Source of the DNA: Paratrimastix pyriformis
Lineage: Eukaryota; Preaxostyla; Paratrimastigidae
Length of the DNA stretch: 64,000 bases
Assembly: GCA_027972325.1 (NCBI GenBank)
Contig: JAPMOS010000001.1
Location: forward strand, 591,001-655,000
Reading direction: 5' to 3'
Shown: positions 9,931 to 59,702 of the stretch, one piece after another
Layout of the letters: each line of letters begins with the position of its first letter
How positions within the stretch are numbered: position 1 is the stretch's first letter
Made by a program: the position numbers and the translations under genes
Notes under the pieces: generated by a model
Databases searched by the model: none
What the model was told of the DNA's origin: nothing
Seen by the model: only the letters and a program-made list of their open reading frames with translations

Positions 9931-12216
9931 ATGAACACGGATCCACTCCCCGACGTTCCCACGGTTTGAAATTTCTGTTCCTCCCTTTCTCACCGTCTGG
10001 TATTTTTCGCCCCCCAACATTAGGCGGGCTTAGTCCCACCACCTTCCGAAGATAATGCCGGGACGTGCATACATCAGGTGGTGCAACGCCCACCGACTCC
10101 CCCCGAACTTCGGCGTTTCCGCCGCTCTGATGAACCTGGAGCCACTTGGAGGCATTGGGGCACTGCCAACGATCCTCTTCCCCCTGCCTATCACACCTAT
10201 GGTGCTCGGTCGGCCTCAGATCGTGAAAACGTCCGTCTCTGGGACTTTTGTGGACACTCGCCCACTTGGAGGCAACCGTTTACTTTCTTTAGGCGGCGAA
10301 ACTGGTGAATCCCTCGGCCACGTCTCACTTTCAAAACCTGGTCGAGAGCCAGATGGAGGCTCACTACGAGTCGCACCTCCGGGAGCCCCTGGGCAAGAGC
10401 TACGTCAGGGGCATCAAGCACCCTGCCCTCTCGCAGCCTGAGTTTACCTTTGGAAAGGCCTCGGGAACATGTCTGCCCCCCCCCCCCCCCCCCCCCCCCC
10501 GCCCCGCCCGCCCCCCGCCCCCGCCCTCGCCCTCGTCCGCCCTTGGCCAGAAGGCGCTCACCCCCGGGGGTGTCTCTGCTCAACAGCGGAGCAGTCGAAG
10601 GAACTTTTGTTCGCACCGACTCCCCAAGAGACGGCGGAGGACCACGCCAGGTACGCTAGGACCCACAACGACTTCCGGCCCGGTCCGCCACGGCCTCTCC
10701 ACCCCCATCGCCATCCCCCCCATCCTCGGAACCCTCCTCGCCCACCTCTCCGCTGTTCCTACATCCGCTTGCTCCCGCGGCATCCTCTTCGGCAGGTGAG
10801 CAGCTCTCGCGCCACTACGACTGGGATTCGACGGGCATCAGGGACCCCGCCAGCCACGTGTCCGTCGGGCGCTCTCCGCTTCCTCTTCCCTCACTCACGC
10901 CTCCCGCCTGCATCATGGGGCCGCCTTCTTTGGTGTGTCCAGCTTTGGCGCCCGGCTGGGAGGCGCTGCTCTGCGCCACGGGGCCGAGGCCAAGCTGGCC
11001 GTCAACCCCCCCACCGCCGAGGCGTCCGTCCCCCGCCACCTCTGTCTCTGAGTGTCCTCCGTGCCTGTGCTCGTGCGCGTCTCTGTCGATCTGTTTGTGT
11101 CTGGCCATGGGAGAGGGCGGTAGAGGGGTGAAGGACCAGAAGCATCATCGCCCTTGCCCTCCTCCCCCCGTCGGCAGCCCCGGCAACACGGACCACATCG
11201 TCCCCAAGCGGGTCGACGAGGTGACCCAATTCCAGTCGTGCGAGCTCGCCAAGCCGCGCGCCCTCAAGTCCGCCCGCCCCCGCCTGTCCACCTGCTTCCG
11301 TCCTCAACACGCCCCGATTTTCCTGATGGCCTCTTCTTCGTTGGCGTGGCGGCGCCCCCAGGGCACGGGCGCTCGACCTGCCGCCCGACCACACGTTCGG
11401 CTCGAAGGCGCGTGCCGAGGCCGACTCGGCATCCACCCTGATCGACCACCGGTACGCGCCCCCCGAGTCCCGCGAGCCCGACAAGGACCTGGGCAAGAGC
11501 AGCCGCATCGGCAAGCGCACCTACACCCCCGCCCGTCTGTGTCCCCTTTGGGTTCCGCCCCTGTGGCCCACCCACTCATCATTCTTTCTGTTCGTGGATC
11601 TTTCTTCTTTCCGCCAGCCGACGCGACCCGTGTGTTTGGGGTGCCCTCGGTGCGCCGGGATATCGCCATGCCCAAGACCCGTTCCATCGCAGACACTCAG
11701 GCCTACGGGGACGAGCCAGGCGCCTCTCGGGCCGTGCAGCCCTTCAACTTCGCCCACCTGGGCCTCGAGGACTCCGACTTTCTGCAGCCCTACACCCAGG
11801 CCGAGGTCCGTGTCTCCCCCGCCCGTCCACCCCGCCTGGTTGGGCTCTCCGGCTTCTCATCATGCCCTCGGATGACTCCCCAGCTGCACTCGTTGGTGAT
11901 CGAGAGCGGGGCCGTGGAGATGAGCGACGAGGAGTTCAACGCCCTCTTCACTGCTGCTTGCGTTGAGGCGCTCTCAGACACGGCCCCAAGCCCCGCCCCG
12001 GTGGCGGCAGACTCTGCGGAAGGTCTCGCCTCCGCCACCCTCTTCCAAGGCTCTCCTCACACCTGTGTTCTCCGTCACTGTTCCGTAGGGTCCCGTGCCA
12101 CACTGGAGGGTTTCCTGAAGCAGCTTGAACGATGGCAAAAAGATCAAATTTTCGCAGGGACGGCAGGTAGGGGAACTCTCTCAAGATCCTCGGCATCGGC
12201 ATCGGCCAGTCGGTAA
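9931..12216 (+). CDS. EFHB: EFHB/CFAP21-like doublet-microtubule protein without the EF-hand pair (multi-exon)
   Basis: EFHB (CFAP21) is a microtubule inner protein of ciliary doublets. The family's segments appear in order: PPELRRFRRSDEPG and WGTANDP (from 10,087), YESHLREPLGKSYVRG (about 10,365-10,410), HYDWDSTGIRDP (about 10,815), IVPKRVDEVTQF (about 11,200), DHTFGSKARAEAD (from about 11,390), then FGVPSVRRDI and KTRSIADTQAYGD (11,634-11,710), and a final helix with MSDEEFN (about 11,920). Exon 1 (9,931-9,963) joins exon 2 (10,024) across a GTTTG donor. Introns at about 10,229, 11,540 and 11,808 rejoin the frame with GTCCG or GTCTG donors. Between RIGKRTYTP and the FGVPSV exon there is no room for the EF-hand pair that animal EFHB has there. 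The exon near 10,640-10,800 could not be joined cleanly. The stop is TAA at 12,214. Confidence 0.85.
10476..10500 (+). repeat. Poly-C run (25) in EFHB intron
   Basis: The run begins directly after a GTCTG donor, so it is the 5' part of an intron and is C on the transcript. Confidence 0.9.
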
Positions 12217-12418
12217 AAATTTGTTCCCTTGCCTCCTTTGGGTGTATGATAACGGAAAACAGCGGCCGATTTTCTCGAGACTCGTGCTTTTGACAGTTTG
12301 AAGACGCTTTTTGCCTGATTGAGTGCAGCCTTCAGTCCCTGAAATATATACACAACCGCTCGCAGCTTTTTTTTCGCCCATTTACTCTCCACCCAATCTC
12401 CATCATCGTTTAAATTCG
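12217..12418 (+). promoter_or_regulatory. Short spacer holding the promoter of the giant surface-protein gene
   Basis: This 202-bp low-GC spacer lies between the EFHB stop and the giant gene's start. It has an AT-rich stretch (atatatac near 12,345) and a T run near 12,370. I see no defined promoter element. Confidence 0.35.
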
Positions 12419-14687: not shown

Positions 14688-17600
14688 ACCCCCGACGCAC
14701 GCAGCCACGGACGCGACTGCCACCACCTGCCCTACGGGGACCTACTCGCTGGGGAGCCAGTCCTCGTGCACCACCTGCCCTGCGGGCACGGCCTGCCCCA
14801 ACGTCAACGGGGCCTCGAACACCCTGTGCCCCCTGGGCTCCTACGCGCTGGCCGGCGCGACTGCCTGCACCACCTGCCCGGCCGGGTCGAAGTGCCCCAC
14901 CACGGGCATCGACGCGATCCAGTGCCCGGCGGGCACCTCCTCGGCGGCCGGCTCCACCACCTGCGCCGACTGCCCCGCGGGCAAGTACGCCGTGGCCGGC
15001 TCGTCGGCCTGCACCACCTGCCCGGCCGGGTCGGCCTGCACCGTCACGGGCACCATCGCCACTTGCGCCGCGGGCACCTACTCGCTGGGAGGCGCAACGG
15101 CCTGCACCGACTGTCCCGCCGGCGCCTACTGCCCGACGTCCGTCCTCGTCCCCCCGCACTGGAGCACTCTGCCCCCTCCCTTCCCAACCCCTCACATTTG
15201 TCTTCGCCCCGCCCTCTCATCCTCCTCCCGGCAGGACGACGGCCACGCCCATCGCGTGCGGCGCGGGGACATACTCGCTCGTGCGGGCCACCGTGTGCAC
15301 CTCCTGCCCGGCGGGCTACGCGTGCTCCTCGACCAGCACCAACACGATGACCCCCTGCCCGGCCGGCACCTACTCGACGGGCGGCCAGATGGCCTGCACC
15401 AACTGCCCCGCCGGCAAGTACTGCCCCTCCAGTCCGTCCCGGCCCCCCGTGCCACCCCTCCTGCTTGTCCCGCATGCTTGCCTCCTATATGATGATGGCC
15501 GCTCGCTCACTCACTCTTCTCCCCGATGGATTCCTATCCTGCAGCGACCTCGGCCACCATCACGGACTGCCCCGCGGGCACCTACTCGCTGGGCAACCAG
15601 GACAGCTGCACCACCTGCCCGGCCGGCTCGGCCTGCCCCGACCTGACGGGGGCCAGCAAGACCTTCTGCGTCTCGGGCACCTACTCGCTGGCGGGCCGCA
15701 CCGCGTGCACCAACTGCCCCGCGGGCTGGCAGTGCCCCCAGACCAACGGGGGCAACAACACCCAGTGCATCTCGGGCACCTACTCGTTGGGCGGCCAGGT
15801 GGCCTGCACCCCCTGCCCGGCCGGCCAGCAGTGCGCCTCCACCAGCGCCGCCGGGGTGGCCTGCCCGGCGGGCAGCTACTCGGCGGGCGGCCTGGCCTCG
15901 TGCACCTCCTGCCCGGCCGGCTCGGCCTGCCCGGTGGGCTCGACCTCGCCCACGGCCTGCCCCGCCGGCACCTACGCCCTGGCCGGCTCGGGCGTCTGCA
16001 CGCCCTGCCCGGCCGGCTCGGCCTGCCCGACGACCCTGCAGGCGCTCTCCTGCCCGCCCGGCTACTACTCGCTGGCCTCGGCCGTCAACTGCACCATCTG
16101 CCCGGCCGGCTCGTCCTGCGCCTCGACCAGCCTGGCCCCCGTCCAGTGCGGGGCCGGCACGTACTCCTACACGGGGGCCATCTCGTGCTCCCCCTGCACG
16201 GCGGGCTTCCTCTGCCCGGCCGGCTCGACCAGCCCCACCTCGGCCACCTCCACCTGCTCCCTGGGCAGCTACTGCCCGGCCGGGGCCACGGCCCCCGTGC
16301 CCTGCCCGGCGGGCACCTTCGCCAACTCGTCCACGGCCTCCAGCCTGGCGTCTTGCTACACCTGCCCGCCCGGGTACTTCTGCCTGCAGGGAACCGGCGA
16401 CCCCTACAAGAACCTCTGCCCCACCGGCTTCTACTGGTCCGCCCTGCCCCCGACATTTACCCTCTCTCGCCCTCCCTCGCCCTCTCTCCACCCCGTTGTC
16501 CACCATCACTCACGCTGTTTCGCCGCCCTTTTTGGTGTGTTTTGCTGTGCTCTTGCCCCGTGTTGGCTGCAGCCCCGCTGGGACGGTGATGGCCACCCAG
16601 TACCCGTGCGGCTCCTCCTACGGGGCGTACAACGAGAAGCTGGGCCAGACGGCCATGTCGGACTGCATCCTGTGCCCCAAGGGGGTCTACTGCCCCCCCG
16701 GGACCACCTCCCCGGTGCTGCCCTGCCCGTCGGGGTTCTTCTGCCCCGAGGGCACCAGCGACTGGTCCTCGCACCCCTGCCCGGCGGGCACCTACTCCTC
16801 GGCCACCAAGCTCACCGACGCCGCCCAGTGCATCGACTGCCCCGTCGGGGCCTACTGCGGGTCGGGCTCCTCGTACCCCTCGCTGTGCCCCGTGGGCTCG
16901 TACAACCCACTGTCTCGGGGCGTCTCGGCGGCGGCCTGCCTGCCCTGCGTGCCCGGCCAGGTGTGCTCCTCGGTGGGCCTCTCGGGCCCCAACCTGCCCT
17001 GCCGCGAGGGCTACTACTGCCCCTCGTCGACCTCCTACCAGACCCAGTACCCCTGCCCGGCCGGCTCGTACTCGGGCTGGACCAACCTGACCGCCTCCAC
17101 CCAGTGCCAGGACTGCCCCGAGCGGTACGCCTGCGCGGCCGGGTGCGGGGTGACCCTGAACCCCCGCAAGGACTGCCAGGCGGGCTACTACTGCCCCAAG
17201 GGCACCTCCAGCCCCACCGACAACCCCTGCCCGGCCGGCACGTACGCCCCCCAGACCAACCTGGCGGCCGTCACCGAGTGCACCACCTGCACGGCCGGCT
17301 TCTACTGCTCGTCGGGCTCGTCGGCCGTCTCGGGCACCTGCTGGGCGGGCTACTACTGCCCCGCCGGGACCTCCTTCCCCAACGCCAACCCCTGCCCGGC
17401 CGGCACGTACGGGCCCACGAACAACCTGTGGCTACTCTCGCAGTGCCAGCCCTGCCCCAAGGGCCACTACTGCCCGCTGGCCTCGGCGGCCCCGCTGGGC
17501 TGCCCCGCGGGCAGCTATGCCAACGACACCAACTTCCAGAGCGGCATCGTGGGCGCCGCCAAGCCCAACTGCATCCGCTGCCCGCCCGGGTACATGTGCG

Positions 17601-20600
17601 CGGCCGCCTCCATCACGCCCACCGTCTGCGGGGTGGGCCAGTACTCCGACTGGGGGGCCACCGAGTGCTCCCTGTGCGAGGCCGGCTACTATTGCAACAG
17701 CAACAGCACCTCGAAGGAGATGATGTACGCCCGGCCCTGCGAGGCGGGCACCTACTGCCCCAAGGGGACCACCCACCAGCCCGACTTCCTCAACAACCCC
17801 TGCCCGGCCGGGTACTACTGCCCCCAGGCCACCCCGCTGCCGCTGGGCTGCCCGGTGGGCATGTACAACCCCAGCGTGGGCATCGCCACGGCCGCCGAGT
17901 GCCTGACCTGCCCCGAGGGGTCCTACTGCATCTTCGCGGCCCCCAACGTGACCGGGCCCTGCGACCCGGGTCACTACTGCCCGGCGGGCACCTCGGGGCC
18001 CCGGCAGTTCCCCTGCCCCTCGGCCACCTATAACCCGCTCTACGGGGCGGCCTCGCTGGAGGCCTGCCGGGTGTGCACCTCGGGCCACTACTGCCTGACG
18101 GGCACCGCCACCCCGGCCCCCTGCACCCAGGGCTACTACTGCATCGTGGGGGTGGCCGACCCCGAGCCCTGCCCGCTGGGCACCTACGGCAACTCGACCG
18201 GCCTCCGCACCGACGAGGACTGCGTCGCCTGCCCGGCCGGCCACTACTGCGACGGCCTGGGGCTGACCGTCCCCACGGGCGAGTGCGACCCCGGCTTCTA
18301 CTGCATCGGGCGGGCCTACACCTCGGCGCCCCCCGAGGGCGTCACGGGCGGCCTGTGCCCCCGGGGTGGCTACTGCCCCGTGGGGTCGTCCTACCCGACG
18401 GCCTGCGAGGCGGGCACCTACAACAACTACACGGGCGGCCGCGGCCAGGTGGACTGCTGGCCCTGCGACCCCGGCTTCTACTGCGCCGGCAGCAACAACC
18501 CCTACCCGACGGCCCCCTGCGACCCCGGCTACTACTGCAGCGGCGGCTCGGGCACGCCCACCCAGATCGTGGCCCCCCAGGGCACCTACACCCTGGCGGG
18601 CGCCTCCAAGCCCTCCCCCTGCGGCATCGGCACGTACAACCCGCTCACGGGCCAGAGCGTGTGCTTCCTCTGCGACGCGGGCTACTTCTGCCCCAACCAG
18701 AGCACCATCTGGCTGCAGGACTGCCCCATCGGGGCCTACTGCCCCAACGGCACCTACAGCGCGCCCTTCTGCCCGCCCGGCTCGTACGGCTCCCGGACCC
18801 GGCTCCGCTCGGCCGAAGAGTGCACCACCTGCCCGCTGGGCCACTACTGCTTCGGCCAAGGCCTGTCCACCTGGACGGGCGAGTGCTCCGAGGGCTACTA
18901 CTGCCTGACCGGCTCCAACGAGCCCATGCCCAACACGGGCGCCACCTACGGCGGGCCCTGCCCGGCCGGCCACTGGTGCGCCAACGGGACCTGGAGCCCG
19001 ACCCCCTGCCCGGCCGGGTACTACCTGCCCACCCTGCGCAACACCAAGGCCAGCCAGTGCCTGCTGTGCCCCCCCGGGTACGCCTGCAACAGCTCGGGCC
19101 TCAGCACGCCCAGCAGCAAGTGCGCCGCGGGGTACTACTGCACGGGCGGCACGGTCCCCGACCGGCCCCTGGGCGACGTGGGCGGGAATGTGTGCCCCGT
19201 GGGGACCTACTGCCCCGAGGGCTCCCCGACCCCGCTGGGTTGCCCCCCGGGCACCTTCAACAACGTCACCGGCCAGTCGGCCTGCCTGGCCTGCCCGGCC
19301 GCCTACTACTGCCTGGGCAACGACTCGATGCCCATCGAGTGCCCCGAGGGCCACTTCTGCCCCGCGGGGACCACCTCCAACGTGCCCCCCTGCCCCGCGG
19401 GCACCTACAGCAACCGCAGGGGCCTCCTGGCCAGCTCCCAGTGCACCCTGTGCGAGGCCAGCCACTACTGCGCCGTGGCCGGGGCCACGGCCCCCACGGG
19501 CGACTGTCTGCGGGGCTACTACTGCCTGCTGGCCTGTGAGAACCAGCTGGGCGGAGGCGGGGCGTCCCACCAGGGCGGGCCCTGCCCCACCGGGTACTAC
19601 TGCCCCGCGGCCACCACCGACAAGATGCCCTGCCCGGCGGGCACCTACAACGGCCAGCCCAACTCCTACCACCTGGACAACTGCACCACCTGCACCCCGG
19701 GTATGTTCTGCCCGTCCCCGGGCCTCTCGGCCCCCACGGGCAGCTGCTCGGACGGGTTCTACTGCACGGGCGGCTCCATGTCGGCCACCCCCTACGGGGA
19801 TGGCGGCAACGAGTGCCCCGCCGGGTCGGCCTGCCCGGCCGGGTCGTCCTCGCCCATCCCCTGCCCGGCCGGGACCTACTCGTCCATGCCCCGGCAGGCC
19901 GTCTGCTCGACCTGCGTCAGCGGGTACTACTGCCCGGCCAACACCACCAACTACGCCCTGAACCCGTGCCCCGAGGGGTACTACTGCCCGGCCGGCACCA
20001 AGTACAGCGCCCAGTACCCCTGCCTGGCCGGCTCCTGGCAGGAGCGCACCATGGCCACCGCGCCCACCGACTGTCACGTGTGCCCTCCGGGCAAGTACTG
20101 CCAGGGCCAGGCCCAGACGGTCGTCACGGGCGACTGCGGGGCCGGCCACTACTGCACCCAGAGCGCCGTCATCAAGACGCCCGGGGATGCCTCCCAGGGC
20201 GGCGGCATCTGCCAGCTGGGCTCGTACTGCCCCGTGGGCAGCTCGGCCCCGGTCAACTGCACGGCCGGCTCGTACTGCGACGCCACGGGGCTCTCCACCC
20301 CCGCGGGCCTCTGCGCGGCCGGCTACTACTGCGTCGAGAACTCCATCACGGGCACCCCCGCCCAGGGCGCCTGTGAGCCCGGCTACTACTGCCCGGTCGG
20401 GTCGGCCGACCACATCCCCTGCCCGGCGGGCACCCTCTCGTACACCTCCCGCAACAGCGCCAACACCTCGTGCGAGCCCTGCCCGGCCGGGTCCTACTGC
20501 AGCCTGCAGGGCCAGAGCGCCCCCGCGGGCGCCTGCCAGGCCGGGTACTACTGCCCGGCCGGGTCGATCTCCCCCCAGGCGGTCATCTGCCCCATCGGGG

Positions 20601-23600
20601 CCTACTGCCCGGCCTCGCGGGCCACCCCGATCACCTGCCTGGCGGGCACCTTCAACAACGTCACCGGCCAGTCGGCCTGCGCCACCTGCCCCCAGGGCTT
20701 CTACTGCACCCCCGACCTGCCGACCACCCCCCAGCTCTGCCCCCGCGGCTACTTCTGTCTGTCCCGCTCCCATCATTGCCACCACTGCCAGCGCCTTCGC
20801 CTCCTCCTCCGCCTCCGCACCTTCGTCCTTTGGTTCTCACTCACATCCCCCACACGTACGCACACGGCACTAGGCACGCCCGGGACGCCCAGCATCCACG
20901 AGCACCCCTGCCCGGCCGGCACCTATGGCAGCGCGGAGGGCCTCACCTCGACGGGCGCCTGCCAATTCTGCCCGGCCGGCAAGTTCTGCGGCACGGGTGG
21001 CCTGACGGCCCCCACGGGCGACTGCCAGGCGGGCTACTACTGCACTGGGTCCTCCGCCACGGCCACCCAGAACGACTGCGGCAAGGGCAAGTACTGCGTG
21101 ACGGGCTCGTCGGGCCCGGCGCTGTGCCCCAAGGGGACCTTCTCGACCGACCTCCACCTGACCGGCTCCGCCACCTGCACCCAGTGCTCGGCCGGCTCGT
21201 ACTGCGCCTCCGAGGGGCTCACGGCCCCCACGGGCCTCTGCACGGCGGGCTTCTTCTGCCGGGACGGCTCGGACACGGCCACCCCGGTGGACATCCCCGA
21301 GGGCGACCTCTGCCCGCCCGGGCACTACTGCCTTAAGGGGTCCGCCACCCCGACCCTCTGCCCCGCGGGCAGCTACCAGAACAACAACGGCAGCTCGTAC
21401 TGCATGGGCTGCCCGGCCGGCTTCGAGTGCAACGCCAACAGCACGGAGCCCATCGACTGTGCCGTCGGCTTCTACTGCCCCGGTCCGCCCGCTCGTCCCG
21501 CCCCAGCCCACCCATCCCTTCCCCATCCCTTCCCACCCCTCCTTTCGCTTCCTCTCACGCTCGCCGTTCGTGTGGTTTTTGACCCTCTCCTTCCCACCCC
21601 CACCCCCACCCCACCCACCCCAGTGAACAGCTCGTACTCGTCCGACCACCCCTGCCCGCCCGGCACCTACGGCAACACCACCAACTGCCTGTCCCAGGCC
21701 CAGTGCGTCACCTGCCCGGCCGGCAAGTACTGCGCCACCTACGGGCTGACGACCCCCTCGGGCGCCTGCAGCCCGTCGGCCTACTGCCCGCCCGGCTCGC
21801 TGCTCGAGTCGGGCCAGCCCTGCCCCAAGGGGTACTACTGCCCCGGGGGTATCGCCAACCCGTGCGACCTGGGCACCTTCTCCAACACCACCAACCTCAA
21901 CAGCGCCGCCCAGTGCCTCAAGTGCACCCCCGGCATGTACTGCGGCTCCACCGCCCTGACGGCCCCCACCGGCAACTGCGCCGCCGGGTACTACTGCACC
22001 CTGGCCGCCACCACGAACCAGCCCGCGGACCCGCTGGGCACCGGGGCCAAGTGCCCGGCCGGGACCTACTGCCCCGCGGGCTCGTCGGAGCCCATCGAGT
22101 GCCCCCTGGGCATGTACAACCCCGACCCGGGCCAGTCCGTCTGCCGGAGCTGCTTGGCCGGGTACTACTGCAACCGGAACGACACGACCGTGATGGTCCC
22201 CTGCACGGCCGGCTTCTTCTGCCCCGGGGCCAACGCCTACGCCGAGGAGAACCCCTGCCCCATCGGCACCTTCAGCACCCTGCTGCAGCTGACGGCCCAG
22301 TCGCAGTGCCTCAGCTGCACGGCCGGCCAGTACTGCGCCAGCGCCGGCCTGACCGCCCCCACGGGCGACTGCGCCGCCGGGTACTACTGCCCAACGGGCT
22401 CCTCCGTGGCCAATGCAGTCCGCTGCCCGGCGGGCAAGTACTGCCCCGCGGGAAGCGCCCTGGCCACCCCCTGCCCGGCCGGGACCTTCACCGCCACTGA
22501 TGGCCTCTCCGACGTCTCCCAGTGCACCGCCTGCACGCCCGGCAAGTACTGCGTCACCACCGGGCTCACCATCGAGTCGGGCAACTGCGCGGCCGGGTTC
22601 TACTGCATCAATGGGTCCAGCACGGCCACCCCGACCAACAACATCACGGGCGGCCCCTGCCCGGCCGGCCACTACTGCCCCCTCGGGACGGCCATGCCCC
22701 AGCTGTGCGCCCTGGGCACGTACAACTCCAAGATGCAGCAGTCGACCTGCGTCAACTGCCCCGCCGGGTTCTTCTGCAACCACAACGACTCGGCCACCCC
22801 GCTGCCCTGCACGCCCGGCTCCTACTGCCCCGGCAGCAACGCCTACGCCGAGGAGAACCCCTGCCCCACGGGCCGGTTTGGCAACCTGACCCAGCTGAAG
22901 GCCTTCGCCGAGTGCCCGCTCTGCCTGCCCGGGTCCTACTGTGCCGCCCCCGGGCTGACGGCCCCCACGGGCCTCTGCGCCGCCGGGTACTACTGCCCCC
23001 TGGGCGCCACCACGGCCACCAACTGGACCTGCCCGGCCGGCTCGTACTGCCCCCAGGGCAGCGCCTGGCCCACGCCCTGCCCCAAGGGCACCTACTCGAT
23101 TGCCCTCGGCCTGCAGGCCGCGGCCGCGTGCACCCTCTGCACGGCCAGCAAGTACTGCGTGAACACGGGCCTGACGGCCCCCTCGGGCTCCTGCTCGGCC
23201 GGGTTCTACTGCACCCTGGGCGCCAACGTGTCGACCCCCACCGACACCGTCACGGGGAACATCTGCCCCAAGGGCACCTACTGCTACTCGGGCACGGTGG
23301 CCCCGGTGCTCTGCCCCCCGGGCAAGTACAACCCCGACCCGGGCCAGTCCAGCTGCCAGACCTGCCCCGCCGGGGCCTACTGCAACCGGAACGACACCAG
23401 CACCACCTTCCCCTGCACGGCCGGCTTCTTCTGCCCGGGCGGCAACGGCTACGCCGAGGAGAACCCCTGCCCGGCGGGCCGGTTCAGCAACCGGACGAGC
23501 CTGGTCGCGGCCACGGACTGCTTCCAGTGCACCCCGGGCATGTACTGCGGCACGGCGGGCCTCACGACCCCCACCGGCGAGTGCAACCCCGGCTTCTACT

Positions 23601-26600
23601 GCCCGCTGGGGGCCGTGGTCGCCTCCAACTGGACCTGCACGGCCGGCTCGTACTGCCCCCAGGGCAGCGCCTGGCCCACGCCCTGCCCCAAGGGCACCTT
23701 CTCGACCTCCCTGCAGCTCACCGACCCCGACGAGTGCACCGCCTGCACGCCCGGCATGTACTGCGCCACCACGGGCCTGACCGCCCCCACGGGCAACTGC
23801 GCGGCCGGGTTCTACTGCATCAACGGGTCCAGCACGGCCACCCCCACCAACAACATCACGGGCGGCCCCTGCCCAGCCGGCCACTACTGCCCCCTCGGGA
23901 CGGCCATGCCCCAGCTGTGCGCCCTGGGCACGTACAACCCCAAGATGCAGCAGTCGACCTGTGTCAACTGCCCCGCCGGGTTCTTCTGCAACCACAACGA
24001 CACCACGACCCGGTTCCCCTGCACGCCCGGCTTCTTCTGCCCCGGCAGCAACGCCTACGCCGAGGAGAACCCCTGCGCCGAGGGCACCTTCAGCACGGCC
24101 TCCCAGCGGACGGCCCAGTCCCAGTGCACCGCCTGCACGGGCGGCATGTACTGCGAGACCAAGGGCCTGACCGCCCCCACGGGCCAGTGCGAGGCGGGCT
24201 ACTACTGCTCGGGCAGCGCCGCGACGCCCCGCCAGTATGTCTGCCCCATGGGCAAGTACTGCCCCACCGGCAGCGCGGCGGGCCTGGGGTGCCCCCTGGG
24301 CAGCTTCTCCAACTCGACCGGCCTGCAGGACGACCTCGACTGCCTCGCCTGCACGCCCGGCATGTACTGCGGGAGCACGGGTCTGACCGCCCCCACGGGC
24401 AACTGCGCCGCTGGGTACTACTGCATCAACGGCTCTAGCACGGCCACCCCCACCGACGACATCACGGGCGCCCCCTGCCCGGCCGGCTTCTACTGCGTGG
24501 CGGGCACGGTGAACCCGGTGCTCTGCCCCCCGGGCAAGTACAACCCCAACGCGGGCCAGTCCGTCTGCGCGACCTGCCCCGCCCGCGCCTACTGCAACTA
24601 CAACGACACCACCAAGGCCTTCCCCTGCACGGCCGGCTTCTTCTGCCCGGGCGGCAACGGGTACGCCGAGGAGAACCCCTGCCCCGAGGGGACCTTCAGC
24701 TCCCGGACGCAGCTCAATCTGCAGTCCCAGTGCACCGCCTGCACGGGCGGCATGTACTGCGAGACCAAGGGCCTGACCGCCCCCACGGGCCAGTGCGAGG
24801 CGGGCTACTACTGCTCGGGCAGCGCCTCGACGCCCCGCCAGTTCAGCTGCCCGGCGGGCAAGTACTGCCCCACCGGCAGCGCTGCCGGCATCGGGTGCCC
24901 CGCGGGCACCTTCTCGACCTCGCTGCAGCTCACCGACCCCGACGAGTGCACCGCCTGCACGCCCGGCAAGTACTGCGCCACCACCGGGCTCACCCTCGAG
25001 TCGGGCAACTGCGCGGCCGGGTTCTACTGCATCAATGGGTCCAGCACGGCCACCCCGACCAACAACATCACGGGCGGTCCCTGCCCGGCCGGCCACTACT
25101 GCCCCCTCGGGACGGCCATGCCCCAGCTGTGCGCCCTGGGCACGTACAACCCCAAGATGCAGCAGTCGACCTGCGTCAACTGCCCCGCCGGGTTCTTCTG
25201 CAACCACAACGACACCACGACCCGGTTCCCCTGCACGCCCGGCTTCTTCTGCCCCGGCAGCAACGCCTACGCCGAGGAGAACCCCTGCGCCGAGGGCACC
25301 TTCAGCACGGCCTCCCAGCGGACGGCCCAGTCCCAGTGCACCGCCTGCACGGGCGGCATGTACTGCGAGACCAAGGGCCTGACCGCCCCCACGGGCCAGT
25401 GCGAGGCGGGCTACTACTGCTCGGGCAGCGCCGCGACGCCCCGCCAGAACGTCTGCCCCATGGGCAAGTACTGCCCCACCGGCAGCGCCGCGGGCCTTGG
25501 GTGCCCCAAGGGGACCTTCTCCACCAGCACCGGGCTGACGGACCCCTCCCAGTGCGCCTCCTGCCCGGCCGGCATGTACTGCGCCACCACCGGGCTCACG
25601 GCCGCCACGGGCCTCTGCCTGGGCGGGTACGTGTGCACCCTGGGGGCCCTCACCTCGACCCCCAACGACACCCTCACCGGGTACGTCTGCCCCCGGGGCT
25701 ACTACTGCCTCAACGGGACCACCTCGGGCGAGATCATCTGCCCCCTGGGCTCGTACAGCCCCACCCCGGGCGCCTGGGCGTGCACCATCTGCCCGGCCGG
25801 GTCCTACTGCAACTACAACGACACCGCCAGGGCCTTCCCCTGCACGGCCGGCTTCTACTGCCCGGCCGGGACGGCCTTTGCGGAGCAGTTCCCCTGCCCG
25901 GCGGGCACCTTCAGCACCACCACGGGCCTGTCGGCCGCCTCGCAGTGCACCGCCTGCACGGCCGGCATGTACTGCCCCACCACGGGCCTGCACAGCCCCA
26001 CGGGCGACTGCCTGGCCGGGTACACGTGCACGGGCGGCTCGGCCACCCCGACCCAGCGCGACTGCCCGGCCGGCTCGTACTGCCCGGCCGGCTCGGTGAG
26101 CCCGACCCCCTGCCCCGCCGGGACCTTCTCCGCCCAGACCTGCCGCACCCAGCTGGCCGACTGCCAGCCCTGCTCGGCCGGCAAGGCCTGCACCACCTCC
26201 GGGCTGACGGCCCCCAACGCCGACTGCGCCCCGGGGTACTTCTGCAACAACGGCTCGGCCGTGGTCAACCCCTCGGACATGGTCACGGGCGGGCCCTGCC
26301 CCGCGGGCCGCTACTGCCCGGGCGGCACCTACCAGCCCATCATCTGCCCAGGCGGCAGCTACCAGGCCAACACGGGCGCGGCCAGCTGTGACAGCTGCCC
26401 CGCGGGCCGCTACTGCACCGAGAGCAACTCGACCTCCCCCCAGGAGTGCCCCGTCGGGTACTACTGTCCCTCGGGGACCTCCCTGTCGACCATGCAGCCC
26501 TGCCCGGCCGGGACGATCACCTCCTCGGCGGGCCTCTCGAGCGCCTCGGGCTGCATCCGCTGCCCGACCGCCTTCTACTGCAGCCAGCCCGGGGCGGGCG

Positions 26601-32600: not shown

Positions 32601-35600
32601 CCGACGTGGAGCGGGCCCAGGGCGCCTACGAGGCCGAGAAGGAGCGCCAGCTGCAGGCCCTCGAGGAGAAGCGCCGCGCCCGGCGCACCCTGCGCAGCGG
32701 GGCCCCGGCCCTGCCCCCGCCCCCGCCGCCCGCCGCCCCGACCATGGTGGCCCCGGTGGCCCTGCCGCCCGAGGTGGAGGACCAGTTCAACGCCGAGAAG
32801 GCCGACCAGCTGCGGGCGGCCGAGACCAAGGCCCGCGAGGGCCGGGCCCGGGCCCAGGCCGAGCTGGCCCAGAGCATGGAGGGCCAGGAGCTCGACCCGG
32901 AGGAGGTGCGGGCCCTGATGGACCAGTACCAGGCCGACCTGGCCCGCACCCAGGCCGCCTTCGAGTCCGAGCGGCAGCGGGTCGAGGAGGACATTGAGCG
33001 GCGCCGGGCGGCCCGGCGGGCCCGGCAGGCGCGGGCCCCGGGGACCCTACTGCCCATGGCCGAGCAGGCCACCCTGCCCGCGGCCGAGGAGGACCAGATC
33101 AACCGCGAGAAGAACGACGCCCTCGTGGCCGCCCAGGTGCAGCGGGACGAGCAGCTGGGCCAGATGAAGAGCCAGCTCGACATGCGCCTGGCCGACCCCA
33201 CCCTCAGCCGCGACGAGGCCCGGGCCCTGGTCGAGCAGTTCTCCAAGGACGCGGCCGTCGTCCAGGTCCGTGGGCGGGCACCACCACCGCCACCACCGGT
33301 GCACCACCACCACCACCACCGGTGCACCACCCCACGACGGGCCCCATCTGACACGCCCCCTTCTTCCTTCCCTTCGGCCCCCTGCAGGAGTCCTTCGACG
33401 CGGAGAAGCAGCGCCAGCTGGATGAGCTCGAGGCCAAGCGCAAGGAGCGCCGGGCTCGCATCGCCCGCTCCCGGGCCGTCGTGGCCGCGCCCGCCCCGCT
33501 GCTGGGCGTGCCCCAGGTGTCCCAGGTGGGCGGTGGTGGGGTCACTCCCCAGCCGGCCACGCCCCGGGGCGGCCCCGCGGTGGCCATCCCGACCGACCTG
33601 CCCGCCCAGGAGGCCCGCAAGCTCGAGGAGGAGCGGTCCCAGCTGGACCGGGAGTCCGAGCAGGCCCGGGCCAAGGCCCTGGAGGCCCTCAAGCAGGAGT
33701 TCGACCGGTCGGTGGCCACGGCCCAGGCCGCCCCCGAGGAGGCCGCCGGGCCCGACATGGAGGCCCTCAAGAAGGACTACGAGGCCCAGGTGGCGGCCAC
33801 CGAGCAGGCCTTCGAGGAGACCAAGGCCAAGCAGATGCAGGCCTTCCAGAAGAAGATCGACGCCCGCCGGGCCCGCCTCCGGGCCGCCCGGGACGCCCTG
33901 GCCGGCAAGGACCCCGAGACGGTCGCCCGCCGGCTGCGGGAGGAGCACGAGCGGCGCCAGGCCGAGATCAAGCGGCGCGCCGAGGAGGAGAAGCAGGCCC
34001 GCATCCGCGAGCTGGAGGAGCAGCTGCGCCAGGAGCAGGAGCGCCTCGAGGCCGAGCTCTCCCACGGGGCCGAGGACGAGGTCAAGGCCCTGCGGGCCAA
34101 GGCCGAGGCCAACATGGAGGCCCGCCGGCAGCAGGTCCTCGAGGATTCCCACCGCAAGGAGGAGGAGAACCTGCGCAAGGCCCAGGAGCAGGCCCGCGAG
34201 GCCGAGAGCAACCCCATGGCCGCGGCGGCCATGCTCAACCAGGGCAACGTGGTGGCCAACGTGGTGGCGGACATCCTGCCCGCCGTGGCCACGGCCGCCA
34301 TGCCCACGGTCGACGAGGTGGTCAAGGAGGCCGAGTACCGGCGTCGGCTGGCCCAGGTCGAGGCGGACGTCGACCACGAGGTGCAGGCGACCATGACCCA
34401 GTTCGAGCAGGAGACCCAGCAGGCCGTCTCGCGCAAGATCGAGGACGCCGAGAAGGAGCTCCGCAAGGGCCAGCAGAACATCCAGTCGCTGGGCCAGATC
34501 CTGGAGACCCGCCAGGACCTCAGCGAGGAGGAGAAGCAGAACATGATGGCCGCCGCGGCCCAGTCGCTGGCCGACATGCAGCGCCAGATGGACGCCGAGC
34601 GGGCCAAGGCCGAGCAGGAGTACCGGGCCAAGAAGGAGGCCCAGAAGAAGCGCCTCGAGCTGCTCCGCCAGCGGAAGGCCGACGAGGAGCGCCAGAAGAT
34701 CCTCCGCGAGAAGGACCGCGACCTGGAGGCGCTGAAGCAGCAGAAGCAGCGCGACGCCGAGACGGAGGCCCTGCGGGAGGTCGTCCGCAAGGGGGAGCTC
34801 TCCGAGGACCAGACGGGCGAGGTCATCGAGCTGCTGCTCTCCAAGCGCCACCTGGAGGAGGACCAGGCCCTGCGGGCCCGCCACAAGCGCGAGGCCACCG
34901 AGGAGGCCAGCCGGGTCGAGGTGGCCCGGCGGCCCGAGGTGGAGCTGCTGCTGGCCACCCTGAAGGCCGACCAGGAGGCCGCCATGGCCGACGTGCCCAC
35001 CGAGGAGGTCGCCGCCCGGCAGAACAAGAACCTGCGCGACTACAACAAGCGCAAGGCCGACCTGGAGGCCGAGACGTCCCGCATGGCCGAGGACGCCCGG
35101 GCGGCCCTGGTGGTGGCCCACCAGCAGGAGCTGCTGGCCCTCCGCGAGCGCCACCTGCAGGAGGTGGCCGCCGTCTGCAAGGAGCTCAGCCCCGGCCAGG
35201 TGGACCTGCTGCGGCGGGCCGAGGAGAAGGTCCGCCAGGCCCGCGAGCTGCAGGACATGCGCCAGCAGAGCGAGCTCGAGCGGCAGCAGTTCATCAAGGA
35301 GAAGCGCGAGATGCGCGAGCGCCAGGAGCGCATGATCCGCGAGGAGGAGGAGCGCCTCCGGGCCGAGGAGCAGGCCGCCCGGGAGGCCCTGCGGGCCCGC
35401 CAGGAGCAGTTCGCCCGCGAGCGGGATGCCCAGCTGGCCGCCGAGGCCGAGGCCCAGCGGCAGCGGGAGGCCGAGCAGCCGCTGACCGAGGAGCAGCAGA
35501 AGGAGATGCTCCAGCAGGCCGAGAAGGACCTGGCCGAGCAGCAGCGGGCCTTCGAGCAGGCCATGAAGGACCAGACCAGCCAGGTGCAGTCCCTGGCCCA

Positions 35601-39883: not shown

Positions 39884-40954
39884 TATGTCAGTTTCCCAAG
39901 AACAAGCAGCGGTTCTTGACCAAGCCCTTCAGGTCGCCCTTCAATTAGCCGAGCAGTGCTCTTCTCTTCTTCAACGGGCAATCAAGGTCGGCATCAAGAA
40001 GCATTGACGGTGCGTGATTTCGTCCTCCTCTATCCAGGAAGAACAAGTCATTGAGACCAAGTCGACTTTTGCCGACCTTGTGACCGCTTATGACAAAAAG
40101 GTCGAAGAGATCATTATTTCGACTGTCAGAAGGGCGTTCCCCGATCACGGGATTGTGAGTGAGGAATCGTTCCCCGTCTCGCCCGCCGAATGGAAGGAAT
40201 GGTCATGGGTCGTGGACCCAATCGATGGAACCACAAATTGGGCCAACCAAAACCCCGTGTTTGCCATTTCTATTGGACTCGCCCATCGCGCGGTTCCTAT
40301 CATGGGGGTGATCGCCCTCCCGTCCCTTCGGGAGGTTGTTTATGCGATCCGTGGTCGAGGGTCTTTCTACTACAAGCCGGAGACTAAACAATTCACTGTT
40401 CGCGAGCCGTCCAACGTTCCCCAGTCTGTGCCTTCTTTCGCCGATCCCCCGCATGGCTGTCATTCCCCCAGGGACTGCCTCCTCACCACGGGCATCGGGT
40501 ACGAGCGGGGGCCGCTCCTCCAGGCCACAATGGGGTATTTCATGGAGCAATTGCCCCTCTGCCGCGCAATTCGCCTCTCTGGTCTGCTGTGCCACCTTCC
40601 CCCCGGCCCTGACCGCCGCTCCCCCGACCCAAGGTTCGGCCTGCTGGGACAATGTCATGGTCGCGACGGGGCGCATTTCGGGCTACTGGGAGCGCCGCCT
40701 CAAGGTGTGGGACTACTGCGCCGGCTCGGTCATCGCCCAGGAGGTCCGCATCCGCACCCGGTTTCGTGATTCTTCACACACCACCATGCCGATGACAGTC
40801 GGGCTGCCGGGCGACCCGCTTCGACGGGCGGCCGGTGCGGCTGGACGACGGGGCCGAGGACTACATCGTGGCCGCGCCCCGGGTGCACGATTACATGGTG
40901 CGCACCCTGGCCACACACCAGTTCTACCTCGCCGGGCAGCCGACCCCTCATTAG
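39884..40954 (+). CDS. Inositol monophosphatase family protein
   Basis: IMPase-family enzymes are magnesium-dependent, lithium-sensitive phosphatases that free myo-inositol from inositol phosphates. The metal-binding motif VVDPIDGTTNW lies at about 40,208-40,240, preceded by GIVSEES, which supplies the first glutamate. The second signature is VWDYCAGSVIAQE (about 40,707-40,745), after GSACWDNVMVATGRISGYW. The ATG at 39,884 starts MSVSQEQAAVLDQALQ; the first intron (39,987-40,037, GTCGG donor) rejoins at AIK/EEQVIETKS. Later introns have GTCTG (twice) and GTCCG donors. The last exon ends FYLAGQPTPH, stop TAG at 40,952. Related activities in this superfamily (bisphosphate nucleotidase, fructose-1,6-bisphosphatase) fit less well by length and motif. 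Confidence 0.9.
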
Positions 40955-41122: not shown

Positions 41123-44100
41123 TCATTGAGGGACCGGCATCCCGGTGGTTCCCGCGGGGGCCGGCGTCGCGGTCGGGGTTGGGGCTGCGGATCCCGAGCG
41201 AAGCGGGCCGTCACTCCACCGCTCGGGGGGGTCGAGCCAGGCCAGGGGCGTCTCGAGGTGCTGCCGAATGCACGCAGCCGGAACAACCATGAGTGAGACA
41301 GCTGCGTCGATCGCCGGGGAGACAGACCCCGCGCTTGGCCAGGAGACGCCAGCCGGCCACCAGGACGTGGGCGCGCTGCTCGGGGGATGCCGCCCGGAGG
41401 CGCATGGGGGCCGAGCGCCCGTCGAGGTGCACCAGGATGTCCGCCGGGGTGGCCGGGTCGCCCATCAGCTGGGCGCACCCCCAGACGGGCCAACCCCAGT
41501 CAAGTTAGGTCGATCCCATTGTCGCAACGACTGGGACGGCCCCACGCCCGGCACCTTCCCGCGGACCTGCATGGAGGGGCTCCAGGCGGCTTTGGCGAGG
41601 GTCTTCTTGCGGCCTGTCCGCACTTTGAGCTTGTTGGCGTCGAAGAGCAGCAGCCGGGCCTCGCCTGTCGCCGGATCCACAAGCTGCGCGGATACGCGGG
41701 GGCGGATGGGGCCGGGGGTGAGCCTGGACGGGGGGGGGGGGGGGGGGGGGGGGGGGGTTGAAGGTGGCGGACCTGGTCGAGGTAGGCTTCCTTCTTGGGG
41801 GCCAGGGCCACGTACTTGGCGGTTGCCTGCCAGACATCCTCCGCTGCAAAGGTTGGTGGCGGTGAGGGGCGGGTCGCCACGGGGGGGGCCGGCGGTCCAG
41901 ACCGGGAGCGACCGTGAAGGGCGACTGGACGTGGGCCGTGGGGCCTTCCATGCCATCCTCCTTCCGGATGGGCGTGACGGAGGCCCGGATGTAGTGGCCC
42001 ACGTCACAGACGTTGGGCCGATAGTCAATCTGATTGGTCCCCATCTCTGCGGGCGAGCGCCGACAGGGGGGGGGAGGGGGCGTGTGAGTGAGGCATGCGT
42101 GGATGGGCGATCTCTCCAAGGTGATGTGCGCAGCCCACGGACCAGGGATCTGCTCGGGGACGGGCTGGGACCCATCGGCGACCTCCTTCCTGAGGCGGTA
42201 CCAGACCACCCGCGGGCAGCCCTCGTTCCCGCCCAGGTAGCGGTACACGGGCCGCATCAGGGTGCCCGCCGGGATACTGCCCGTCGGGAACTGGGGCAGC
42301 AGGGCCGCCAGGGCCACGTTCGAAAGCACGGGGGGCGCTACAGGCCAGCGAGGAAAGAGGGGCGGTCACTCGGACGGGCCAAAAAGCCGAGACAGACCTG
42401 GGATGACGGGCGGGGTGATGTGGGCGGCCATGGGGGCGCCCCCGACCAGCCCCACGCACCGGAGTGCGGCCCCTACGTCGGCCTTGACGGGCGTGTACTG
42501 CGGCTCGGTCGCCCCGGGGATGGTCACGAACCCCGTGCCCCCCTGGGGCTGCCGATACCTAGCGGAGGCAGTGCCGGATCAACCAGCCATCGGGGCAGGT
42601 GGTGCGGACCATTGGAATGTGCACATCCCCTCGGGGGCTGCGGGGTCCCATTGGGCCTTCATGACCAAGGGTTTGGCCTCCTCGGGGGCGTCGGAGCTGG
42701 TCGGCGCCACCCCGGTGAGGATGGGTTGGGCAGGTGGAGCAACGGCCGGCTTCTCCGGGGAGGGCGGCGGCGGCGGCGGCGGGAGCACTAGGGAGGCAAG
42801 AGCCGAAGCCAGCCGTGGGAAATGAGATGAGCGTGGCTGGGGGAAGGGGGGATGCAGACGCTTGAGGAGGGGCTCGCACCACGGGCTGGCCGTCTCGTCG
42901 CCCCGGACCCCGTCCGAGCGCACAGGCGTCCACAGGCACCGGAAGCGGGCCCCCAGGTCCTCGTCTCGGGCCTCGTAAGTGCCGGTGACCCCTTCCAGGA
43001 TGACCGCCTAAAGGAGGATCAACCGTGAAACAGCCCCTCGTTAAATTTGGCCATTCGATGCTTCCCGTCTCCCACAGGCTGAGTCGGCCTCCTCCCTCCC
43101 CATCCACAACGCGTTCTTCATCCTTCCGCCACCACTAAATGATCCATCGCTCGTCCGTCCCCGATGCCGGATGCCGGAGGCGTCTGCTGCTCCCATTGTT
43201 ACCTTTGGCTGTCCTCGATGAACACCGTCTACTCATTTTTCATTGTGTCTGTTGACATTTTCCACTCTCTGGATGAGAACATTCGACTTTAGTTCGAAAG
43301 CAGGAGGGCTCATTTTCTCCTGGTACCGGGTCTGTTCGAATTCTCCCTTTAATGCTCACCGCCATTTTGCAGGAACAACCACAAAATCAAATCAAAAATC
43401 TGCTCATTGTCAATGCAAGCAATTTCCACGCATTGGATGCCTTTGCGACCCAACTGTGCCCCGTATTATGTGCAGATGGTCCGGCAAGCGGGATTGACGT
43501 TCTGGAGGCAGAAAATTACAAAATTCAATGCTACCGAGCACCCACGGGTGTCTTGTTTTTCGTGGTTGCCGAACTCTCGGCCACCCGGCTCGATGAGCTG
43601 CTCCTCCAGATCTATCGGCTGTACTCCGACTTCGTCCTCAAAAATCCGACCTACTCCCTGGATCAACCTCTTCGAGACCAGCCAGCCTTCAAGTACCACC
43701 TCGAGAACCTCCTTCGCCCCGCTCAATAACAGGGTTTTGTACCGTTTTGCAGTGTCGGCGCTGCCGCTGACCGGGGGGGGGGGGGGGGGGGGGGCGGACG
43801 TGGGGATGCAGACCTGTCGCTCCCCGCTGCCCCACCGCTCCCAACGCACGATCGGAGCCGCGGCCTCGCCGCCCATGTACGGGGGCGCCTCGCAGTGCAG
43901 CACGGGCATCCCGGGGCCGGGCTGGGTCACGTGCAGCGCGGGCGGCTTCATGAACCGGGGCGGGGCTGCGGGGCGCAGGGCGCAGGGCGGGGGGGTGGCG
44001 GAGACGGATGAAGTGGCGCCCCCGAGCCGAATGCAGAGCAAGGACAGGGGCGAGGAGTGTTGTGAAGGGGTGGAGAGGGGAGGGGGGGAGCGGACCTGGC

Positions 44101-58357: not shown

Positions 58358-58407
58358 AGGTACCGCCTAACAATGCGCGGTGTAATGGCTTGAGCGCTTG
58401 AGTTCAT

Positions 58408-58542
58408 TCAGACTTTGATAACGTCGTGATACGTGGGCGTCATGTGGAAAAAGAGCCTGTTCATCAGGATTCCTGTCCCCCAGTACACCGCGCTTCCGAG
58501 AGCCCATAGTCCCAGAAAAAAACCGAAGTGCTGCGGTTTCAT
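58408..58542 (-). CDS. Small single-pass membrane protein (44 residues), hypothetical
   Basis: The frame ATG 58,542 to TGA 58,408 encodes [20 protein letters not shown] and then a polar end ([11 protein letters not shown]). There is one hydrophobic helix with small-residue spacing (GxxxxxG) and a short tail. Its start is 72 bp from the divergent LSM3 start, which suggests a shared promoter. Its middle GC level matches LSM3 rather than the LINE fragment beside it. I do not recognise the family; small subunits of ER or mitochondrial complexes look like this. It could also be chance, given its length. Confidence 0.4.
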
Positions 58543-58614
58543 TCCTTGCACAAGGTTCGTTCAACCAAATTCCGGCAAGCGGCTTTGTTGCCGCGGCCGA
58601 GAAAACACAGCAGC
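58543..58614. promoter_or_regulatory. Possible bidirectional promoter between the small ORF and LSM3
   Basis: Only 72 bp separate the two ATG codons, so any promoter must be shared or lie inside a 5' end. No TATA-like word is present. Confidence 0.3.
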
Positions 58615-59041
58615 ATGCAGAAAGCGACCGCCCCACCCACCAGCGCCCCCGAAGTGGAAACTGTCCGCGAACCTCTGGATCTGATTCGCCTCAGCATTGG
58701 CGAAAAAATCTATGTGAAGCTTCGCAGTGACCGCGAGCTTCGGGGAACACTGCATGTCTGCCCTCCACCAAACCCTCCTTTCATCTCTGGCGCGAGGAGT
58801 AGGCGTACGACTCACACCTGAACTTGATGATGAGTGATGTCGAGGAAACGATCACATCTGTGGACGTTGACTCCGAAACCATGGAGGAAATTGTCAAGGT
58901 TCGTTTTTTACATTTCTTCACTTCATTTCTGGGGTAATGATATTACTGATACTCATCGTCTAGCAAACCAAACGGAGGTCTCCGATGCTTTTTATTCGTG
59001 GGGATGGTGTCGTTCTCATTTCTCCTCCTCTGCGCACGTAA
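58615..59041 (+). CDS. LSM3: U6 snRNA-associated Sm-like protein LSm3
   Basis: LSm3 is part of the LSm2-8 ring that binds the U6 snRNA 3' end and of the LSm1-7 ring in mRNA decay. The Sm1 motif is clear ([27 protein letters not shown]), then [17 protein letters not shown] and, in Sm2, [15 protein letters not shown]. Exon 1 is 58,615-58,755, exon 2 is 58,803-58,898 and exon 3 is 58,964-59,041. Donors are GTCTG and GTTCG, acceptors TAG. Because the protein is so conserved, these are among the most certain splice sites in the window. The length (about 104 residues) is usual. The whole gene is moderate GC. Confidence 0.96.
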
Positions 59042-59702
59042 CATGAGTTCTGTATCCTTAGTCACCCCTGCTCTCTGTGGGCGAGTGGGAGGAGTCAGCT
59101 TCTCGTTCCCGATTAGGCTAAAAAGTCCTTGTCGGATGAACAAACCAGCGGGGAGCGGAGCGGAGAGAAGCGGGGAGCAGAGAAGCGGGGAGCAGAGAAG
59201 CGGGGAGCAGAGAAGCGGGGAGCGGAGAAGCGGGGAGCGCGAGGAGAAACCTACAAATAAATACACCCCAGACGCACTGCGAGAATGTGCGGGCAACGAA
59301 AGGAAAGAGGAGGAGGACCCATCGCGGGCACACCACTCACAAACCCAGGAGCAGAAGACACACACGGACACAACAAGCAGACACAACCGATGGGAAGCGA
59401 GAGACGGAATGCAAATGAAAGAAGAACGGCTGGGCGAGGGGCCGACGATGTGAGACAGGAAGCGCGAAGCTCCCAACAAATCCATCGTGTCGTCCGTCCC
59501 TCGAGAGAAGCGGGCACAAGGGGGAGGAAGTGGCGGTGGGCAGGGGCGGGCGGGAGCAGGGCGGGCGGGGCAGGGGCGGCGGGGTGGGGACGGGAGGGAG
59601 AGCCATTCGGAGGGAAAGCAAGCAGGGCGAGGCGATTAAGAAAGCTCACGAAGAGCCGAATAGAACCGACGTCCCACGGCTGCAGGTGAGACGTGGCGCC
59701 GA
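59042..59702. other. Spacer between convergent LSM3 and SMG1-like genes
   Basis: It holds a 15-bp minisatellite (59,150-59,240) and then purine-rich plus-strand sequence. Open frames are present but none has a recognisable domain. It is probably the 3' UTR of both genes. Confidence 0.5.
59150..59240. repeat. 15-bp minisatellite (agcagagaagcgggg)
   Basis: About five tandem copies, the first and last imperfect. Confidence 0.9.

What the first reader, a model, noticed from the sequence alone, without database searches (positions are those of the whole stretch)
9964..59700. Donor sites are GTCTG/GTCCG, not GTRAG, across the whole window
About 28 introns could be placed because flanking exons rejoin a protein in phase, several inside highly conserved proteins (LSM3 58,756 and 58,899; TRAPPC4 43,247 and 43,330; IMPase 39,987; PARG; SP-RING intron at 5,830; EFHB; giant gene 13,266, 20,758, 21,482, 33,266; AIR9 43,813, 41,327). 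In every one donor position +3 is C or T; +5 is almost always G. Standard GTAAG, GTATG and GTGAG were not seen at placed sites. One unplaced EFHB site (GTACG near 10,651) may differ. A normal U1 5' end (ACUUACCUG) pairs poorly with GUCYG. The inference is that this organism's U1 has a changed 5' end (roughly CRGAC in place of CUUAC), or that U6 does more of the work.
Basis: partly seen in the sequence, partly recalled or inferred. Interest (0 to 1): 0.8.

Follow-up and report, generated by a model that had tools for sequence, protein, structure and literature searches.

The report
Rewritten intron-start signal with matching U1
In this unnamed eukaryote introns mostly begin GTCTG instead of the usual GTAAG-type signal, and all eight U1 RNA genes found carry the two matching base changes, so a recognition code thought nearly universal appears to have been rewritten on both sides.

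Summary
I placed introns by spliced protein alignment that required only GT...AG and had no preference at +3 to +6. Of 167 introns, 92 in 39 genes passed a flank filter. At +3 these have C 64, T 24, A 3, G 1; at +4 T 60, C 23; at +5 G 85. None is GTAAG or GTGAG. The consensus is GTCTGT, i.e. GTYYG, so the title's GTCTG/GTCCG is slightly too narrow. The search found eight U1 genes and all eight begin AUACAGACCUUG where AUACUUACCUG is normal: U5U6 became A5G6, giving CAGAC. No canonical U1 was found. U6 (4 of 4), U2 (9 of 9) and U5 (2 of 2) boxes are normal. Mean predicted donor-U1 pairing is -8.5 kcal/mol with the real U1, -4.2 with a canonical one. UCUGU (+2 to +6) is also the exact complement of the unchanged U6 ACAGA box, which may be why this alternative was reachable. 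Parker et al. 2023 named the position-5 change as a possibility and found U1 invariant in the yeasts they read. Organism unidentified; no RNA reads.

The parts
58756..58802 (+). LSM3 intron 1, donor GTCTGC, acceptor TAG
   Evidence: spliced alignment to human LSM3, 47 nt, passes strict filter
58899..58963 (+). LSM3 intron 2, donor GTTCGT, acceptor TAG
   Evidence: spliced alignment to human LSM3, 65 nt, passes strict filter
43247..43292 (+). TRAPPC4 intron 1, donor GTCTGT, acceptor TAG
   Evidence: join FFIV/SKAGGLIF; continuous in homologue P0122, 69% identical
43330..43372 (+). TRAPPC4 intron 2, donor GTCTGT, acceptor CAG
   Evidence: join SWYR/EQPQ; continuous in P0122
39987..40037 (+). IMPase-like gene intron, donor GTCGGC
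   Evidence: spliced alignment to human IMPA1; weak flanks, not in strict set
40424..40471 (+). IMPase-like gene intron, donor GTCTGT
   Evidence: weak flanks, not in strict set
40582..40633 (+). IMPase-like gene intron, donor GTCTGC
   Evidence: weak flanks, not in strict set
   Evidence: motif present; splice not re-derived
   Evidence: motif present, one base off; splice not re-derived
20757..20762 (+). donor GTCTGT named as 20758 (giant gene)
   Evidence: motif present, one base off; splice not re-derived
21483..21488 (+). donor GTCCGC named as 21482 (giant gene)
   Evidence: motif present, one base off; splice not re-derived
33266..33271 (+). donor GTCCGT (giant gene)
   Evidence: motif present; splice not re-derived
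41322..41327 (-). donor GTCTGT (AIR9 gene)
   Evidence: motif present; AIR9 domain nearby on this strand; splice not re-derived
43808..43813 (-). donor GTCTGC (AIR9 gene)
   Evidence: motif present; AIR9 domain nearby on this strand; splice not re-derived
10651..10656 (+). possible exceptional donor GTACGC (EFHB, unplaced)
   Evidence: motif present; GTACG occurs in 2 of 92 strict introns elsewhere

Best explanation
The major (U2-type) spliceosome of this organism uses a rewritten donor code. Bases 5 and 6 of U1 snRNA, normally two uridines, are A and G in all eight U1 genes found. The U1 5' end AUACAGACC therefore pairs G6 with C or U at +3, A5 with U at +4, C4 with G at +5 and A3 with U at +6, and selects GTCTGT-type donors (shown as sequence complementarity; use in splicing is inferred). 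After U1 leaves, the same donor passes to an ordinary U6 whose ACAGA box is the exact complement of UCUGU, so the U6-donor helix can be fully Watson-Crick from +2 to +6 (complementarity shown; use inferred). My proposed history is that U6 is too constrained to change, so U1 and the donors could move together only towards the U6 complement, GUCUGU (inferred, not tested).
For: Donors: 88 of 92 strict introns have C/T at +3 and none is GTAAG/GTGAG. The highly conserved Prp8 gene alone gives 13 introns: GTCCG 9, GTCTG 2, GTCGG 1, GTTCG 1; a rerun with no splice-dinucleotide requirement recovers 11 of the 13 with the same length. U1: 8 of 8 copies hold ATACAGACCTTG and 0 of 8 ATACTTACCTG; bases 1-58 are identical in all eight. 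RNA start: in 8 of 8 U1 genes the distance from the promoter element is 59-60, and 8 of 9 full-length U2 genes fit the same distance (U2 start inferred). Match: of 16 possible dinucleotides at U1 5-6, AG pairs best with the donors by a simple pair score and canonical UU ranks 13th (80 Ras-family introns). Mean duplex energy over 92 donors is -8.54 with the real U1 and -4.18 with a canonical U1; 300 background GT sites give -4.17 and -3.03. U6, U2 and U5 pairing boxes are canonical.
Against: All eight U1 hits score below Rfam's gathering cut-off (best 60.2 against 69.5 bits). Folded alone, one U1 copy does not give the cloverleaf with a free 5' end as its best structure: bases 4-8 are paired, and forcing bases 1-11 free costs 3.4 kcal/mol and yields another non-cloverleaf fold. 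The zf-U1 family search did not find U1C; its only hit looks like WBP4 (naming by recall). The real U1 is not the best of all 256 sequences at bases 3-6: it is 5th. The canonical comparison also differs at base 11. No RNA reads, so neither U1 5' ends nor junctions are proven by experiment. 75 of 167 aligned introns failed my flank filter, and the logo rests mostly on one gene superfamily.
Confidence: 0.9

Rival explanations
1. A canonical U1 exists but is missing from the assembly or was not scored; the eight found are variant U1s, and donors are mainly chosen by U6 and proteins.
For: The assembly is in 495 contigs, and only 41 of 992 first-look candidates were scored. The diplonemid S. specki carries an altered U1 beside a normal one (PMC12621601, passages). 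The solo fold of the found U1 is not the cloverleaf.
Against: The Rfam model's consensus is canonical U1, so a canonical copy should outscore those found. A promoter-based census found 38 sites (3 for the reversed control); 28 of the 29 sites not already assigned were fetched as 27 loci and Rfam (E <= 0.1) gave no U1 among them. A canonical U1 would pair poorly with most donors.
Confidence: 0.05
2. The donors are misplaced: real splice sites lie nearby and are ordinary GTRAG.
For: No RNA evidence, and some flanks align weakly.
Against: Only 1 of 80 Ras-family strict introns has an in-register GT-AG alternative within 12 bases, and it is GTGTG. The Prp8 rerun without dinucleotide rules gives 11 of 13 introns with the same length. 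A homologue is continuous across the TRAPPC4 joins. Misplacement would not produce an independent match to U1.
Confidence: 0.01
3. The donors drifted first for U6 reasons (for example loss of U6 m6A43, which favours +4U) and U1 followed. This concerns the order of events and is compatible with the main statement.
For: +4 is U in 60 of 92, and GUCUGU contains the full complement of ACAGA. Parker and colleagues tie +4U to loss of METTL16 and SNRNP27K in yeasts (PMC10581693 and PMC11732430, passages).
Against: A METTL16 homologue is present (one match, L087; best PDB match is the U6 A43 methyltransferase, E 2e-11). SNRNP27K was not looked for. Nothing in METTL16 loss explains +3. Order of events cannot be read from one genome.
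Confidence: 0.2

Closest known systems
Standard U2-type spliceosome (ACUUACC U1, GTRAGT donor)
   Same: GT-AG introns; U6 ACAGAGA, U2 GUAGUA and U5 loop unchanged; a U1 recognisable by Rfam over its full length with a GAUCAC loop
   Different: U1 bases 5-6 are AG, not UU; donor +3/+4 are mostly C/U and U/C, not R and A
Saccharomycotina +4U donor switch (Parker et al. 2023, PMC10581693; passages)
   Same: a donor shift that includes +4 A to U
   Different: there U1 ACUUACC was invariant in the 227 of 230 Saccharomycotina and 9 of 10 outgroups where a U1 was found, and the U6 ACAGA box was invariant; here U1 carries the change those authors named as a possibility (position 5 to A), plus position 6 to G
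Diplonemid S. specki alternative U1 (PMC12621601; passages)
   Same: a U1 gene with an altered 5' end
   Different: there it sits beside a conserved U1 and both fit the donor logo comparably; here all eight found are changed and the donors match them
Fritillaria borealis non-GT/AG introns (PMC13326754; introduction and first part of the discussion read)
   Same: genome-wide change of splice signals
   Different: there the U1 5' end is strictly preserved and most introns are not GT-AG
Amoebophrya non-canonical introns (PMC7789003; passages)
   Same: genome-wide departure from the usual donor
   Different: many dinucleotides at intron ends; U1 not detected

Membership tests
Major (U2-type) spliceosomal introns | GT-AG ends | tested here: inconclusive
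   Required by construction in all runs but one; the Prp8 run without the requirement gives 11 of 13 introns of the same length, boundaries within 0-8 bases of GT/AG
Major (U2-type) spliceosomal introns | GTRAG-type donor | tested here: not met
   0 of 92 GTAAG/GTGAG; 88 of 92 have C/T at +3
Major (U2-type) spliceosomal introns | U1 5' end ACUUACC | tested here: not met
   0 of 8 U1 loci; 8 of 8 read ATACAGACC
Major (U2-type) spliceosomal introns | U6 ACAGAGA, U2 GUAGUA, U5 loop GCCUUUUAC | tested here: met
   4 of 4, 9 of 9 full-length, and 2 of 2 loci
U1 snRNA (Rfam RF00003) | covariance-model match over gathering score | tested here: not met
   50.8-60.2 bits against 69.5, though E 3.7e-13 to 2e-10 over the full model
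U1 snRNA (Rfam RF00003) | full-length match with GAUCAC loop and Sm-type site | tested here: met
   model positions 1-166 matched in all 8; loop and Sm-like site read in the sequences; motif identities recalled
U1 snRNA (Rfam RF00003) | cloverleaf fold with free 5' end | tested here: inconclusive
   aligns to the cloverleaf model, but the minimum-energy fold of the single sequence is not a cloverleaf
Minor (U12-type) introns | RTATCCTT donor | tested here: not met
   no GTATC among the 154 Ras-family introns nor in the Prp8 and window rows; AT-AC introns were excluded by construction and not tested

The most novel reading that the evidence does not exclude
The donor code of eukaryotes has an escape route set by U6. 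Because GUCUGU holds the exact complement of the invariant ACAGA box, U1 and the donors could switch together to it. In the same organism the minor spliceosome may have been rewritten too: its single U6atac gene found reads AGCCGAG where the family consensus reads AAAGGAG, predicting minor donors with ..UCGGC.. instead of ..UCCUU.. (prediction by inference).
Probability: 0.3. Interest if true: 0.93.

Novelty: new variant of a known kind. Interest (0 to 1): 0.86.

Why it matters
The U1 5' end is among the most conserved RNA sequences; the unusual lineages in the papers looked at here whose U1 is described (Giardia, two nucleomorphs, Stentor, Fritillaria) keep the usual sequence. A natural genome in which U1 and the donors changed together is an evolutionary compensatory-mutation experiment: it shows that the code can be rewritten, helps separate what U1 requires from what U6 requires, and warns against gene predictors trained on GTRAG.

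Tried and rejected
Organism identity failed. The SSU rRNA family search gave no usable answer twice, an exact 18S pattern had no match, and three protein searches gave no close named relative: IMPase one hit at 37%; Prp8 about 80% identical mostly to land plants in the 120 of 3009 hits listed, with one nematode and some unnamed rows, which I do not read as kinship; TRAPPC4 one unnamed metagenome hit at 69%. Raw GT-hexamer counts in the window are not informative: high-GC hexamers lead and GTCTGC is only 23rd of the 40 listed. U1 against phage records: no match. The U1 pattern in viral contigs hit one contig with no Rfam match at gathering threshold, in a stretch that looks like a phage coding sequence (recall), i.e. 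chance; in bacterial genomes two hits, no U1. U11 was not found. Pattern looks for changed or canonical minor donors in the window and held loci gave nothing convincing. U1C was not found by Pfam zf-U1. Literature searches for GTCTG-type donors or an altered U1: (listings); beyond the diplonemid alternative U1 I saw no such report, but the library lacks most subscription papers.

Full report
Setting. The window lies in G000, a 56.06-Mb assembly in 495 contigs that carries no name. It is GC-rich (58-75% per 4 kb of the window) with short introns (median 55 nt in the strict set).

Checking the donors. I wrote a spliced protein-to-DNA aligner that requires GT at the start and AG at the end of an intron and knows nothing about +3 to +6. 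I ran it on Ras/Rab/Ran/Rac-type loci from one family search (99 matches; 30 loci cut, 20 more fetched; 5 of the 50 dropped beforehand as the same gene as another locus). That gave 154 introns in 45 loci, one of them without introns. Two near-duplicate loci with 5 introns were dropped before counting. I added the Prp8 gene (13 introns) and five window introns (LSM3 2, IMPase 3), in all 167. Requiring a BLOSUM sum of at least 15 over eight residues on each side leaves 92 introns in 39 genes: 80 Ras-type, 10 Prp8, 2 LSM3. Their donors are GTCTG 40, GTTTG 13, GTCCG 11, GTTCG 9, GTCAG 4, GTCTT 3, GTCTC 2, GTACG 2, GTCGG 2 and one each of GTTGG, GTATG, GTGTG, GTCGA, GTTAG, GTCCC. No GTAAG or GTGAG occurs. 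GT dinucleotides in the Ras-family gene spans have C/T at +3 in 60% and the pattern Y3 plus G5 in 20%, against 96% and 88% at the donors. In the Prp8 rerun with no dinucleotide rule, 11 of 13 introns keep their length, with boundaries sliding by 0-8 bases; the first two, in the poorly aligned N-terminal part, do not.

An independent check came from a database. Joining TRAPPC4 at 43247-43292 and 43330-43372 gives a protein whose only match at E <= 1e-8 (15 candidates), P0122 from metagenome sources, is 69% identical and runs unbroken across both joins.

Checking U1. The Rfam U1 model gives eight loci at E from 3.7e-13 to 2e-10, all below the gathering cut-off, all covering positions 1-166. All eight begin ATACAGACCTTG; none contains ATACTTACCTG. 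Bases 1-58 are identical in all copies while the flanks differ, so they look like genes under constraint, though recent copying could also keep them alike. Upstream lies GTCCCATAA (ATCCCATAA in one), with CCCATAA 59-60 bases before the RNA start in all eight. The same element stands 58-60 bases before the inferred start of U2 in 8 of 9 full-length U2 loci, and upstream of U6 in 4 of 4 and of U6atac. A census of this promoter found 38 sites against 3 for the reversed pattern: 5 known U1, 4 known U2, one near a U2 gene that I did not fetch, and 28 sites fetched as 27 loci, among which Rfam found two U5 and two U3 genes and no U1. Against a tidy picture, the single-sequence fold of U1 is not the cloverleaf.

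The match. With U1 base 6 = G and base 5 = A, +3 can pair with G6 in 95% of donors (G-U included) and +4 with A5 in 71%; canonical U would pair in 5% and 10% (80 Ras-type introns). Mean predicted duplex energy over the 92 donors is -8.54 kcal/mol with the real U1 and -4.18 with a canonical one (the two also differ at base 11). Over all 256 sequences at U1 bases 3-6 the real one ranks 5th and the canonical one 164th; the four better ones hold more G or C. U2, U5 and U6 boxes are unchanged.

Mechanism. U1 and U6 read the same donor in turn. The real U1 5' end AUACAGA is identical to the U6 segment AUACAGA, so GUCUGU is complementary to both. In the usual spliceosome U6 pairs well with +5 and +6, less so with +3 and +4 (recalled structural knowledge; for +4 see PMC11732430, passages, and PMC13326754, discussion). 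The donor that fits the unchanging U6 best differs from GUAAGU at +3 and +4, exactly where U1 has changed. I infer that U6 set the direction. A METTL16 homologue persists, so the +4U preference here need not reflect loss of that enzyme, unlike the yeast cases; SNRNP27K was not looked for.

Literature. Parker et al. [quoted passage not shown] Giardia, Guillardia and Bigelowiella nucleomorph, and Stentor U1 keep the usual sequence (passages), as does Fritillaria. S. specki has a C-rich extra U1 beside a normal one. My nine answered searches show no report of a wholesale switch; the library is partial.

Limits. No RNA data, no named organism, no relatives for dating, U1C not found, U1-70K not looked for. 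The donor logo rests on conserved genes, mostly one superfamily.

Noticed in passing
L088:1501-1633 (G000:C445:22122-22254): Single U6atac gene found (46.6 bits, cut-off 33) whose donor-pairing stretch reads AGCCGAG where the consensus reads AAAGGAG; it has the shared snRNA promoter element. Would predict rewritten minor-intron donors. U11 not found.
   Followed up: partly
L090, L094, L099: Three genes with the snRNA promoter element share a 5' part ATCTCTCAATTTGAAGG...GGCCTTTTTTAGACC (with small differences); two also share an Sm-like CACAATTTTTC and a 3' stem. No Rfam match for the RNA at E 0.1 (L094 has a weak, cut-off SSU match on its edge).
   Followed up: partly
L001-L008, L017-L028, L088: U1, U2, U6 and U6atac genes share a promoter element (G/A)TCCCATAA or close, often with a T-run before it, resembling the plant snRNA upstream element (recall).
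   Followed up: partly
L061:1501-1608: The only zf-U1 protein match looks like WBP4 (a WW-like stretch follows; naming recalled), so U1C was not located; it may be split by an intron or divergent.
   Followed up: partly
L001-L008: The U1 stem-loop 2 region lacks a recognisable U1A loop (AUUGCACUCC, recalled), and the U1-70K loop reads AUCACACA rather than AUCACGAA (recalled).
   Followed up: no
window 15647-34396 +: A stop-to-stop frame of 6249 codons; the part scanned (15647-30000) has weak ephrin-receptor-like repeats (PF07699, below cut-off).
   Followed up: no
L087: METTL16 (U6 A43 methyltransferase) homologue present although donors favour +4U.
   Followed up: partly
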